Assembly (NCBI GenBank): GCA_947258435.1 | Contig: CAMYID010000023.1 | Coordinates: forward strand, 186,001 to 250,000 | Length of the DNA stretch: 64,000 nt | DNA from: an uncultured Alphaproteobacteria bacterium | GTDB lineage: Bacteria > Pseudomonadota > Alphaproteobacteria > UBA11222 | Reading direction: 5' to 3' | Part shown: positions 49,445-63,538 of the stretch, one piece after another | Layout: each line of letters opens with the position of its first letter | Numbering within the stretch: the first letter of the stretch is position 1 | Notes under the pieces: model-generated | Told to the model about the DNA's origin: nothing | Database searches by the model: none | The model's input: only the letters and a program-made list of their open reading frames with translations | Program-made: the position numbers and the translations under genes

Positions 49445-52400
49445 TTAGTTGGGTATCGGCTGACTTTGCAAATCCATCGGCAATCCCAGCGCACCAAGCT
49501 TGCGCCGCGGGCCCGCATCAGGTGCCTGATCCGTATCATCGCGGCGCGCTTCGGGACGCGGCTGGAACCGGTCCTGCTCCACCTCATCGGTCACGAAATA
49601 AGGATTGCCATCGGGCCCGATATAAAGCCGCTTCTGTTCTTCAAGTGTGAAGGGGCGCGAACCGAGCCGTCCGAAAACCGCGATCTGCCCACCGGTTTCA
49701 TCAACGCCCCGATCCCGGTCAAGCCCCTTGGACAACGACGTCGCCGGCCAGCGTGTTTCACGCCAGGCAATCAACTCAGGCTTGGGTTCGGGACTGAAAC
49801 CGTAAAAGCGCGGCTGACTATCGGGCGATGTCAACTGAATGACCTTAAGGCCATTCACCCCATCGGCGACATAGGCAAACAGTGACGCATTGGTCGATCC
49901 GACCACCACATCACGGGCATCGCTTAACGCACCGTCGGCGGTGTATTTCTGGTAGACCGTGGGCTTTTCGGCATTTTCGATATCGATGATCGCCAGCCCT
50001 TCGCTGCCCGCCGCCACATAGGCATAAGTCCGGGCAAGATAGATCCGCTGCGCATCGGCCAATGGTGCCAGCGCCCCGTCAACATGGCGCGGTGCCTGCG
50101 GGTCCGTTACATCGATAACCTCAAGCCCTTTTGCCGTACTGACGAACAGATAGCGGAACTGCAGCGCGGTTGCACGGGGATCCTGCATCGGGATCTGCGC
50201 AACAAGCTGTGGCTTCAGCGGATCAAACATCGACAGCACAACGATATCGCGCGGCGTTGCGATATAGAAATAACTGCCTGCAATCGTGATATGGCGCGCG
50301 CCGTCAAGCACACCGTTCTCATTCCAGGTAAGCGCGCGTTCAAAGAAATTATTGCGCGGCTCCCCGTCAGCCAGCGTTGTGACATCGACAACGATCAACC
50401 CTTCCTCGCGGTCGGTGATGAAAGCATAGCGATAAATTTCGTGCATTTTCTGCTCCTGATTTGTCTTCAGGATCAGATCGCCCTCATTGAGATCGATGTT
50501 GATATTCTGATTGGTCGGCAGTGCAACGCAACTCGCATCGCGCGTTTCCAGATGGGTGTCGTGCCCTGGCGCAGCAAATGGCGCGGTGATGATGCGATCC
50601 GAAAAGCCCTTATTGGCAATCGCATTCACATCATAGGCCTGAAAGCCGTTTTTGCCTTCGGCGATGAACACATATTCACCGCGCAACATCAGACACCCCA
50701 CATTGCCCGCTTTCTGGGTGTAGGCTTCGGGTAGATTGCGTTGCCGGTCCAGATGCTGCTGGTACCAGTCGGGATAGGCATATTTGTGCAGATAGCTGCC
50801 CAGTACCGCCTGCGGTTCGTCCCACTCGGTCACGCGCACCGCTTCAAAGCCGCCTTCCGCGCCGACATAGGCGTTGAAACCGACAAGATTCACGAAATTG
50901 GTCCCGTGCAGCATAAGCTGCGCCATGATCGCATTATTGTCGTTGGCTTCCGACAAATGACAATCGGTGCAGGTCTTTGTTTCCGTCTTCCGCGCGGTAT
51001 GCGGGAAATGCGGCGCAAAAGCCTGACTTGAATAGCCCGAAGCGGCAATCGGCGGCTGCTGAACGTAAAGACGTTCGCGATTGATATTGGTCGAAGACAG
51101 TACCAACGCAGAGGACGACCGGATCGGAGCGATCGTGTTGCCTTTCACCGTTGCATTAATCCCGAGCTGGAACATCTGATCACGGACAACCTGCGGATTA
51201 TAGGTCGCATAGTTCCGCGTTTCCCCGCCTTCAAAGTGATTGCGCGCGGTTTTCCAGTTTGCCTCGATCGGCAGATGGCACCCGGCGCAGCTCGTCGTCC
51301 AGGAGAGATGGCAGGTAAAACACTCCATCTCCTCATCCTTGTGGGCAAGGTTCTCGGGCGACACACCGGGCCCCCAATCGAACGGCGCATCGGCGGTGCC
51401 CAATTTCGACATCAGCTTGGCGCGTGCCGCCTTGGCATTGAATTCCTTGTGTCCGGGGTCAACGCTGTCCTTGACGAGCGACAATTCCCATTCCAGATCC
51501 CCGTCAAGCATCGAGCGCTGATAGAGCTTGCCATCCACCCACTGAAAGCGGCGCTTGCCGAACGGCGTATAGCTCAGCGACAGATCCTTGCCTTCACCTT
51601 TGGCGGCCGGTCCGCTGGTCCGCAATGAGGGATAACGTTGCGCCGTGCCGTGGCAATCGTCACAACGGATTTCAATCGCCGCTGCCGCCTCGCCATACAG
51701 ATGCCCGTCGCCGTGCACATCCTGCTCGAAATGGCAATCCACGCAATGCATGCCCTTTTCCAGATGGATAGATTTCATATGCACCGCTTTCTGGAACTTA
51801 TCGGGATCGTCGGGATCAACGATATTACCTTCCGCATCCAGCAGATTGCCCTTGCGGTCCTTCTTGAAAATCGCGCGGAAATTCCAGCCATGGCCGTGAT
51901 AGTCGGCAAATTGCGTATTCTTGAGCTGTGGATTAAGCAGCGACACATCCTTAAGGAAATCCGGATCGGACCATTTGCCGCGGATTACCGCCCCTTCAGG
52001 ATTGCGTTCAAGCGCTTCATGCTGCTCCGCATTTGTGGGATAGCGCTGCTCCTCAGGCCACATGAACGGCGCATCGGATTCATAGTCCCACATGGTGTAA
52101 CCAAGATAGGAATTCACAAAGATATTCGGCTGATGCATGTGGCAGTTCATGCATTGCGCCGTCGGAATGGCGCGGGTGAATTCATGCTTGAGCGGATGCC
52201 CGGGCTCATCCTTGGGGATCGTCGGATCAACCGTCTGCGTCAGCCCTGTATTGCCATATTGCGCATAGGGCCCGGAATTATAGGGATCGCGGTCATTCGC
52301 ATAGGGCACATGGCATGCACCGCAGCCCGATGTGCGGAAATCGCCCGGATTATCATTTGTGCCCAAAAACCACATGAAGGGGTCATTAAGCCGGGTCTTG

Positions 52401-61144: not shown

Positions 61145-63538
61145 TTATCTTCCCTGCGATACGATCTTGAAAAACTCGGACGGATTCACCCGCAACGCCG
61201 CACCGGTCGGGCAGGCGCGAACGCACGAAGCACCCCCTTCAATATCCTTGCACATATCGCATTTGACGGCCTTTTTCGCGCCCCCCTTGCCATGCGCCGC
61301 AAGCCATTCCGCATCCGGCTGCCCCGGCCCCGGCCCGCGGCCGAACAGCAGCCATTGCAACAGCCCCGGCTTCTTGGGCTGCGGCGCCGCCATGTGGATC
61401 ACACCGTAAGGGCAGTTCCGCTCGCAATTGCCACAGCCAATGCAGGAATCGCTGACATAAACCTCGCCATTCGGATTACGCCGCAGCGCATCGGGCGGAC
61501 AATCCACCATGCAATGAGGATGCTCGCAATGCCGGCAGGATGTCGGCACATGAATCGACTCATAAGTCGGCCCGGCCTCCCGATTCAGGCGCGATTGCCC
61601 AAAATGGGTTTCCGCACACGCTTTTTCACAATTATCGCAGCGGACACACAAGGCCTCATCGATCAGCAACACATCCGTTGCCTCCCCAAGCCCCTGTTCA
61701 ACCAGGAACTGGATAATCCCGCCCGCCTGCGGCTGCTTGGTGCTTTCGATATTTTCAAGCATCCGGCCGCGATATTTTTCTTCCATCAGCTCCCGCACTG
61801 ACGGGTTGCGCTCCATCAGCTGCTGAAATTTCTCCCCGTCCAGCCGCAGCGCCTCGACCGGCACCGCGGCCTTGATGGTCGCTGAACGCGGCGCATTGCT
61901 GATCAGCGCCATCTCGCCGACATAATTGCCCGCCGCGACATAGGAAATCACCGATTCCTTACCACCGATCTCGCGCGAGACGGTCACCGAACCACGCTGG
62001 ATCAGATACAGGCAGTCCCCTGCGTCCCCTTCCCGGAACAGCACATCGCCCTGATCGAACTCTTCGACCTGAACTGCGTGAATAAGCTCCTCAAGTTCCT
62101 CCATCGGGATGCCGGGCGCGATATAGGTCTGGATCTGCCGGCCAACGGCCACCTCATCCATAACGCGCTTGACCGCCTCCACCGAGTTGATCAGCTTGAT
62201 CATTGTCCGGCGCGGCGTTTCGATCAGCAGCGAAGGCTGTGAGGCCAGCACCGTCGCTGTCCGCCGGCGCCCGGACAGCAGCCCCATTTCACCGAAGAAC
62301 GCCCCCTGCCCGAGCCCGACGGTAACGGAAGGATCGTCGGGATTGACCTGAATATCGACGCCGCCATCCACGATCGAGAAGAAGCTGTTGGTATAGTCGT
62401 TGCGCTCAAACACAATATCGCCCTTGGTGGGCGTGTGAACATCGCTATCGATCAGAAATTCGCGCAGTTGCAAGGTCGTCAGCCCCGCCAGCAGCGGTAC
62501 CGAATCCTGAATATGTGCAATCACCTCATCAACCGGCGGATTGCCCGGGAGATTGCGGAATTTTTCCTCAAGCAGCGGCTCATCCGCAGGTTTGACGTGA
62601 TTGCCCTGTATATATTCGACAACCTCATAGCCCTGGTTCATCGCCTGCTTGATCAGCGGATAACCCGCCAGCGCACCGATGATGTAGAGCCCGGGCACAT
62701 TGGATTCATATTCGCCACTTAATTCAGGTAGTGCCGCCGGGTCATCGCTGGGAAATTCGATCCCGCAGCTTTCCACGAATTTACGGGGCGGAATAGCGCC
62801 AAGCCGCGCAATCACACGGTTGCAGGCAACCTTGGTCTCACCTTGCGGCGTTTTAAGGATGATACCATCATCTTCGACCCGCAAAGGCGACGCACTGTAA
62901 AGGCACTCAAGCTCGCCCTTTTCGATGGCAGCGGTAATCAACGAATTATTACCCTGCTTCGCACGGGCGAATTCGTCGCGGCGATTGACGATGACAACAT
63001 TGTTCTGCTTCGACAGTGCCACCGCATTTTCAATCGCGGCATCACCCGCACCGACCACGACGATCGTTTCATCGGCATATTCATCAGGGTCGTCGAGCTG
63101 ATACTGGATCCATTCGCGATCCTCGCCCTCCACCCCCATCTTGCGCAGGTTACCCTGCAGGCCAATCGCAAAAATAACGAATTCGCAGGTCAGCGTATCG
63201 CCATTGCCCAATGTCAGCGTGAAGTCGCCCTTACTGCCGCTGATCGCCGTAACTTCAGCCTTGTAGCGGACATTGACCACATGCTTTGCGGCTTCATCGT
63301 CCCAGGTCTGCAGAATGTCTTCGCGAATCCCCATGGCAAAGGACATATCGCTGCGCAGCGGCAGGATATCGGGCGTTGCCATGACAAGCTTGCCCTTCTG
63401 ATACTTGTAGATCGTATCAGACAGATGATCGGTCTGTTCCAGAAGCACATGAGACACACCGGTAACGGCGGCATGACCGGCCGCACTCAAGCCGCCAGGC
63501 CCGGATCCAACGATCGCTACCTTAAAATGCTCCCCCAC
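61145..63538 (-). CDS. FAD/NAD(P)-dependent oxidoreductase fused to two cyclic nucleotide-binding domains and a polyferredoxin (4Fe-4S) module
   Basis: VAIVGSGPGGLSAAGHAA, VVVGAGDAAIENAVAL; FGEMGLLSGRRRTATV and VGEMALISNAPRSATI; CVRCDNCEKAC, CRHCEHPHCMVDCPPDA, CIGCGNCERNCPYG, CDMC...CVRACPTGA. Confidence 0.92.
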   Translation of the reverse strand: MGEHFKVAIVGSGPGGLSAAGHAAVTGVSHVLLEQTDHLSDTIYKYQKGKLVMATPDILPLRSDMSFAMGIREDILQTWDDEAAKHVVNVRYKAEVTAISGSKGDFTLTLGNGDTLTCEFVIFAIGLQGNLRKMGVEGEDREWIQYQLDDPDEYADETIVVVGAGDAAIENAVALSKQNNVVIVNRRDEFARAKQGNNSLITAAIEKGELECLYSASPLRVEDDGIILKTPQGETKVACNRVIARLGAIPPRKFVESCGIEFPSDDPAALPELSGEYESNVPGLYIIGALAGYPLIKQAMNQGYEVVEYIQGNHVKPADEPLLEEKFRNLPGNPPVDEVIAHIQDSVPLLAGLTTLQLREFLIDSDVHTPTKGDIVFERNDYTNSFFSIVDGGVDIQVNPDDPSVTVGLGQGAFFGEMGLLSGRRRTATVLASQPSLLIETPRRTMIKLINSVEAVKRVMDEVAVGRQIQTYIAPGIPMEELEELIHAVQVEEFDQGDVLFREGDAGDCLYLIQRGSVTVSREIGGKESVISYVAAGNYVGEMALISNAPRSATIKAAVPVEALRLDGEKFQQLMERNPSVRELMEEKYRGRMLENIESTKQPQAGGIIQFLVEQGLGEATDVLLIDEALCVRCDNCEKACAETHFGQSRLNREAGPTYESIHVPTSCRHCEHPHCMVDCPPDALRRNPNGEVYVSDSCIGCGNCERNCPYGVIHMAAPQPKKPGLLQWLLFGRGPGPGQPDAEWLAAHGKGGAKKAVKCDMCKDIEGGASCVRACPTGAALRVNPSEFFKIVSQGR

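What the first reader, a model, noticed from the sequence alone, without database searches (positions are those of the whole stretch)
49445..63538. Seven-gene block predicted to encode a complete trans-envelope electron conduit
Seen: seven same-strand genes, mostly with gaps of 0-16 bp or ATGA overlaps (one gap of 163 bp). They encode a cytoplasmic flavo-FeS protein, a membrane protein with haem-b-like His pairs, a membrane-anchored decaheme cytochrome, two secreted proteins, an outer-membrane barrel and a secreted decaheme cytochrome. That gives 20 predicted c-type haems. Established: porin-cytochrome conduits (MtrCAB, PioAB, Geobacter Pcc complexes) combine periplasmic multihaem cytochrome, barrel and outer cytochrome. 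Inference: this operon moves electrons between NAD(P)H/quinone and an extracellular partner, in either direction. The combination of FHA, cyclic-nucleotide-binding, GlcG/HbpS and LVIVD modules does not match any conduit I can name.
Basis: partly seen in the sequence, partly recalled or inferred. Interest (0 to 1): 0.92.

Follow-up and report, generated by a model that had tools for sequence, protein, structure and literature searches.

The report
NADPH-linked wire across both membranes
Seven neighbouring genes, plus an eighth elsewhere in the genome, encode a predicted protein wire for moving electrons between the cell interior and the outside; its inner half matches a known but untested system called PCC4, its outer half is a different and very common module that no one seems to have characterised, and relatives carry one outer half or the other, never both.

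Summary
The seven-gene block is real, with coordinates, 20 haem motifs and domains as described. A-B-C-(D)-E-F-G order recurs across Alpha- and Gammaproteobacteria; Betaproteobacteria carry E-F-G-T-A. A and G co-occur in 11 of 399 Pseudomonadota genomes (p about 1e-17), even where unlinked. The inner half (flavin-CNB-4x[4Fe-4S] A, two-haem-b membrane protein B, FHA-decahaem C) matches published PCC4 (He 2017): B carries its WX3HX13H (twice) and SGXXG motifs, the Fe-S gene lies upstream of B, C has 10 haems. The outer half is not PCC4's: F models as an 18-strand AlgE-like barrel unrelated to the PCC4 porin, and G is a decahaem protein with an LVIVD propeller. So this is one inner chassis with interchangeable outer modules. 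Best reading: NADPH-fed, cyclic-nucleotide-gated electron export in aerobes; direction, gating and trans-barrel passage are inferred. Not MtrCAB. A 2026 metagenome paper seems to have glimpsed the F-G-A type. New variant of a known kind.

The parts
61145..63538 (-). Gene A: cytoplasmic flavoprotein (GXGXXG FAD site, NADPH-type Arg after the second Rossmann motif) + two cyclic-nucleotide-binding domains + four 4Fe-4S clusters; no TM segment
   Evidence: Pfam; 16 Fe-S cysteines invariant in 99/99, CNB Glu/Arg invariant in 99/99, R186 in 98/99, no CXXC redox pair; nearest solved proteins Bdr/YpdA, PKA/PKG regulatory domains, FHL/HDCR Fe-S subunits
60148..60981 (-). Gene B: inner-membrane two-haem-b protein with the PCC3/PCC4 'IMP' motifs (W79-H83-H97, S120-G121-G124, W251-H255-H269)
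   Evidence: 2x WX3HX13H and SGXXG in 50 of 52 homologues; motif defined in PMC5566968
58367..60139 (-). Gene C: cytoplasmic FHA domain, one TM helix (143-161), periplasmic 10-haem cytochrome c
   Evidence: 10 CXXCH in 76 of 79 homologues; FHA Gly-Arg kept 78/78 but the SxxH serine is lost
57914..58366 (-). Gene D: small secreted protein, no family; found mainly in Alphaproteobacteria
   Evidence: signal peptide by sequence
55793..57910 (-). Gene E: secreted protein with three HbpS/GlcG-like stretches
   Evidence: PF03928 82.9 bits, 3 stretches; weak matches to solved HbpS-like proteins
53326..55776 (-). Gene F: outer-membrane beta-barrel, 18 strands predicted, AlgE-like fold, with a disordered N-terminal extension of about 280 residues in this lineage
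   Evidence: AlphaFold, Foldseek, homologues named 'alginate export domain' by UniRef
49445..53329 (-). Gene G: secreted 10-haem cytochrome c with C-terminal LVIVD beta-propeller
   Evidence: weak similarity to ExtM (NF040943, 80.6 bits, cut-off 800)
63784..64000 (-). 3' end of ccmI (cytochrome c maturation), upstream of A; the rest lies beyond the window
   Evidence: TIGR03142 87.2 bits, cut-off 29.3

Best explanation
A two-module trans-envelope electron conduit. The inner module (A-B-C) takes electrons from NADPH in the cytoplasm: FAD and four 4Fe-4S clusters of A, two b-haems of B, then the membrane-tethered decahaem C, whose FHA domain probably docks A. A free periplasmic tetrahaem cytochrome T (G000:C5, outside the window) relays electrons to the outer module (E-F-G), where decahaem-propeller G works with the AlgE-like barrel F at the outer membrane and the secreted HbpS-like E handles the substrate. 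Cyclic nucleotides bound by A gate the flow. Shown: the genes, haem and cluster ligands, conserved order, co-occurrence, the mutual exclusion of the two outer modules, the link to T. Inferred: outward direction, NADPH as donor, gating, passage of electrons through or beside F, the role of E, and the extracellular partner (Fe(III)/Mn(IV) colloids, O2 or humic matter).
For: Order conserved. A and G: 15 and 12 of 399 genomes, 11 shared, p 1.8e-17; in G266, G401 and G449 the ABC and T-E-F-G operons are unlinked yet both present. Outer modules exclude each other (18 G-only, 9 pentahaem-only, 0 both) and T is in all 27 (and 36 for G in the sampled genomes). B has the PCC3/PCC4 haem-b motifs, likened by He et al. 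to NOX/ferric reductase. A: TrxR/Bdr-like flavin domain with the NADPH-type Arg, 16 invariant cysteines, intact CNB phosphate cassettes. ccmI is next to A. The genome has one COX1 (aerobe) and one secretin.
Against: The barrel has 18 strands, too narrow for an MtrA-like sheath and closest to a polysaccharide exporter. The haem part of G could not be modelled (pLDDT mostly under 50), so no docking was tested. No lipobox on G; surface exposure unproven. NADPH specificity rests on one Arg and overall similarity. The FHA lacks the phosphothreonine-binding serine. No expression or biochemical data were found.
Confidence: 0.55

Rival explanations
1. Electron uptake: the same chain runs inward. G and F take electrons from extracellular Fe(II), Mn(II) or another donor, and B passes them to quinone or A passes them to NADP+, as He et al. 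proposed for PCC4.
For: He et al. drew PCC4 as donor -> quinone pool and linked it to metal-oxidiser habitats; B resembles quinone-active cytochromes b; a 10-haem forkhead-associated cluster was found in 27 Gallionellaceae iron-oxidiser genomes (PMC10734462).
Against: A begins with an NADPH-type flavin domain, and no route for energy coupling is seen; carriers include organisms not known as lithotrophs such as Dokdonella, Solimonas, Tahibacter, Lysobacter and SAR116; the 2026 survey also reads most PCC hosts as heterotrophs that export electrons.
Confidence: 0.2
2. Not a wire across the outer membrane: the cytochromes stay periplasmic, and F is a channel that lets a soluble oxidant or product through, so that G is a periplasmic terminal reductase (selenite- or tellurite-like, as suggested for ExtI).
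For: F is an AlgE-like 18-strand channel; G has weak ExtM/ExtN/ExtO similarity, and ExtI, the porin of that Geobacter cluster, is implicated in selenite/tellurite reduction but not Fe(III) citrate reduction (PMC5877670); G has no lipobox.
Against: F-G are adjacent in 61 of 62 loci and one of two porin-bearing modules is nearly always present with the inner module; E is secreted; a type II secretion system that could export G is present.
Confidence: 0.22

Closest known systems
PCC4 subgroup II (He et al. 2017, PMC5566968)
   Same: Fe-S (pfam13247) gene upstream of a haem-b membrane protein with WX3HX13H/SGXXG motifs, a 10-haem cytochrome, a 4-haem cytochrome; same A-B-C proteins in the P-O-T-A-B-C loci found here
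   Different: Porin and 5-haem cytochrome of PCC4 are absent and replaced by E-F-G; no detectable homology of F to the PCC4-type porin or of G to the pentahaem; the main text of He et al. does not describe a CNB/FHA design
'Group 1' porin-cytochrome clusters of the Sterkfontein karst survey (PMC13264449, 2026)
   Same: Large decahaem cytochrome (4-5 kb) beside a porin of about 20 strands, with a nearby ferredoxin-NADP+ reductase in 7 of 11
   Different: Identity by sequence could not be checked; inner module, tetrahaem and module swap are not described
MtrCAB / PioAB / Geobacter Pcc
   Same: Works like: periplasmic multihaem cytochromes plus an outer-membrane barrel
   Different: 18-strand AlgE-like barrel; no DmsE-family (MtrA) cytochrome above cut-off in the block; cytochrome G has an LVIVD propeller; NADPH-type flavoprotein instead of a quinol-only feed
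Geobacter extHIJKLMNOPQS (ExtI/ExtM)
   Same: Porin + multihaem cytochromes + cytochrome b; G partly matches the ExtM model
   Different: All matches far below curated cut-offs; no rhodanese, selenoprotein or Rieske subunit in the block

Membership tests
PCC4 | Inner-membrane protein with five TM helices, SGXXG on helix 4 and WX3HX13H on helices 3 and 5 | tested here: met
   Motifs at 79-97, 120-124, 251-269; 50 of 52 homologues. Simple hydropathy gives four helices plus the motif-bearing one at 79-97
PCC4 | Fe-S (pfam13247) gene upstream of the membrane protein (subgroup II) | tested here: met
   Fer4_11 = PF13247, 29.8 bits, cut-off 26.2; A-B adjacent in 78 of 80 loci
PCC4 | Periplasmic cytochromes with 10 and 4 haems | tested here: met
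   C has 10; T has 4 but is unlinked, G000:C5:27902-29206
PCC4 | Cytochrome with 5 haems | tested here: not met
   No match in the window's genome
PCC4 | PCC4-type porin | tested here: not met
   F vs the porin of PCC4-like loci: hhalign probability 2%
MtrCAB/PioAB | Barrel of 26-28 strands sheathing a DmsE-family decahaem | tested here: not met
   18 strands; best folds AlgE, MOMP, Occ porins; DmsE-family model far below cut-off
MtrCAB/PioAB | Electrons demonstrated to cross the outer membrane | not testable with these tools
   needs biochemistry
PCC3 | Very large periplasmic and extracellular cytochromes (medians 21 and 34 haems) | tested here: not met
   10 + 10 + 4 haems
ExtM (NF040943) | Score above curated cut-off of 800 bits | tested here: not met
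   80.6 bits

The most novel reading that the evidence does not exclude
A bacterial counterpart of NADPH oxidase stretched over two membranes: NADPH-fed, quinone-independent and switched by cyclic nucleotides, delivering electrons outside aerobic, often planktonic cells (extracellular superoxide, or reduction of colloidal Fe/Mn), with a standard inner unit that evolution plugs into different outer-membrane terminals.
Probability: 0.22. Interest if true: 0.87.

Novelty: new variant of a known kind. Interest (0 to 1): 0.66.

Why it matters
If the system exports electrons, aerobic heterotrophs would have a regulated surface reductase bearing on iron and manganese supply, extracellular superoxide and electroactivity. 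The mutual exclusion of outer modules on one inner chassis also gives a clean system for studying how conduits are assembled and re-wired.

Tried and rejected
Scan of named genomes with a 39-row FHA-decahaem alignment failed for lack of a conserved stretch; the flavoprotein alignment was used instead. Solved-structure searches with C, F and G by sequence gave nothing useful. F vs PCC4-type porin and G vs PCC4-type pentahaem: no homology. AlphaFold of G: haem domain not modelled, propeller only. Paper searches for FHA, LVIVD or HbpS with multihaem cytochromes found no description of this combination; subscription papers and preprints are not in the library. Considered and rejected: MtrCAB or PCC3 member; G as ExtM; chance clustering of unrelated genes. 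Some loci bear misleading organism labels (Klebsiella, Mesoflavibacter, Mycobacteriaceae, Marinimicrobia); these are probably mis-assigned metagenome bins and were not used as taxonomic evidence.
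Full report
Observation. The seven minus-strand genes are present as described. I name them A to G in transcription order. A (61145-63538) is a flavin-CNB-CNB-ferredoxin protein, B (60148-60981) a small membrane protein, C (58367-60139) an FHA-TM-decahaem cytochrome, D (57914-58366) a small secreted protein, E (55793-57910) a secreted HbpS-like protein, F (53326-55776) a barrel and G (49445-53329) a secreted decahaem cytochrome with LVIVD repeats. 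The listed ORF of F starts upstream, but the signal peptide MKSLSASVGIAAILVG places the start at 55776.

Conservation. Where the block is unbroken on one contig, two related genomes (one of the same genus, one of the same family) have all seven genes in the same order at 55-97% identity, and one genome of another family of the class has the full seven at 35-64%. A scan of named genomes with the flavoprotein alignment gave 80 loci; A-B-C-(D)-E-F-G recurs in Rhodospirillaceae, SAR116, Sneathiellaceae, Lysobacterales, Nevskiaceae and others, while Betaproteobacteria show E-F-G-T-A. Adjacency in order: A-B 78/80, B-C 76/77, D-E 25/25, E-F 61/63, F-G 61/62. In a sample of 399 Pseudomonadota genomes A is in 15 and G in 12, 11 shared (Fisher p 1.8e-17); the one genome with G alone holds it on a 1.1-kb contig.

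Two modules. In three genomes of one family the inner operon A-B-C and an outer operon T-E-F-G are about 620-670 kb apart or on different contigs, yet both present. T is a tetrahaem cytochrome (PF13435/PF14522). The window's own genome has T on another contig, beside type II secretion genes gspE and gspF, so the system holds 24 c-type haems rather than 20.

Relation to PCC4. He et al. (PMC5566968) defined PCC4 as a porin, three periplasmic cytochromes with 4, 5 and 10 haems, a membrane protein with WX3HX13H twice and SGXXG, and in subgroup II an Fe-S (pfam13247) gene upstream of it. B has these motifs, as do 50 of 52 homologues; A carries PF13247; C has 10 haems. Loci L064, L084, L086, L087, L091, L093 and L100 hold A-B with the pentahaem P, the porin O and T, which is the published PCC4 gene content; this match is by gene content and motifs, since He et al.'s own sequences were not at hand. 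The window lacks P and O. Of 30 genomes checked, 18 have G and no P, 9 have P and no G, none have both; T is in all 27; two genomes with A but neither outer module also lack T, and one has E, F and T with G probably lost at a contig end. In the tree of A the PCC4-type loci fall in three separate places, so outer modules have probably been exchanged. F and the PCC4-type porin, and G and the pentahaem, show no detectable homology. The genomes were chosen for holding A, and related genomes are not independent, so the exclusion p-values are descriptive.

How it may work. A keeps 16 cysteines in 99 of 99 relatives (four 4Fe-4S clusters), both nucleotide-cassette Glu/Arg pairs in 99 of 99, the FAD glycines in 98, and an Arg typical of NADPH enzymes in 98; it has no thioredoxin-reductase CXXC. 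Its parts are closest in solved structures to Bdr/YpdA, PKA/PKG regulatory domains and Fe-S subunits of formate hydrogenlyase and HDCR. He et al. likened the B-type protein to the haem core of ferric reductase and NADPH oxidase. Joining an NADPH-type flavoprotein to it suggests a split NADPH oxidase that hands electrons to C instead of to O2 at the inner membrane (inference). The FHA domain keeps Gly-Arg but not the phosphothreonine-binding serine, so docking is likelier than phospho-recognition.

The weak point. F is modelled as an 18-strand barrel (strand pLDDT mostly 75-92, N-terminal 282 residues disordered) with AlgE as nearest fold, and UniRef names some homologues 'alginate export domain'. 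That is narrower than MtrB, so whether haems pass through F is open. G's propeller is modelled but its haem domain is not. G has weak ExtM similarity; ExtI, the porin of that Geobacter cluster, is implicated in selenite/tellurite reduction (PMC5877670), which keeps a channel-plus-reductase rival alive.

Known or new. The inner module is PCC4's. The outer module, T's role with it, and the exchange of modules are not described in any paper I could search. A 2026 karst metagenome paper (PMC13264449) reports a group of clusters with a 4-5 kb decahaem gene beside a porin of about 20 strands, often near a ferredoxin-NADP+ reductase; by features this is probably the same type, though I could not compare sequences. 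A 10-haem 'forkhead-associated' cluster in 27 Gallionellaceae genomes (PMC10734462) is probably C. I therefore file it as a new variant of a known kind: it works like a porin-cytochrome conduit, shares PCC4's inner half, and fails PCC4 membership on porin and pentahaem.

Verdict. Real and conserved; the conduit reading is likely but untested. Direction, NADPH use, gating and trans-barrel passage are inference.

Noticed in passing
G000:C5:27902-29206 (L123:9851-11224), outside the window: Tetrahaem cytochrome T that belongs to the system sits divergently next to gspE/gspF-like type II secretion genes; in SAR116/Rhodospirillaceae loci T lies near a prepilin peptidase gene and A.
   Followed up: partly
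L114, L115 (G060) and L116, L117 (G089, G206): A, mostly with C and sometimes B, occurs without T, G or the PCC4 pentahaem in at least G060 and G089 (C has 9 haem motifs in G089 and G206): a possible third form of the inner module with an unknown outer partner, or none.
   Followed up: no
L051, L062, L072 (Betaproteobacteria): A DUF5916/CBM9-like outer-membrane-type protein follows A closely in Burkholderiales; link to the conduit unknown.
   Followed up: no
47326-49291: Downstream of G on the same strand: an alpha/beta hydrolase and a beta-keto acid cleavage enzyme, also downstream in the same-genus genome (L011); probably a separate catabolic unit.
   Followed up: partly
40356-42245: 2-oxoacid:ferredoxin oxidoreductase-type subunit (fused POR/POR_N) in a genome with a haem-copper oxidase.
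   Followed up: no
window 53326-55776, residues 1-282 of F: Long P/Q/Y/A-rich N-terminal extension of the barrel, about 816 residues here against about 600 in distant relatives; predicted disordered, role unknown.
   Followed up: no
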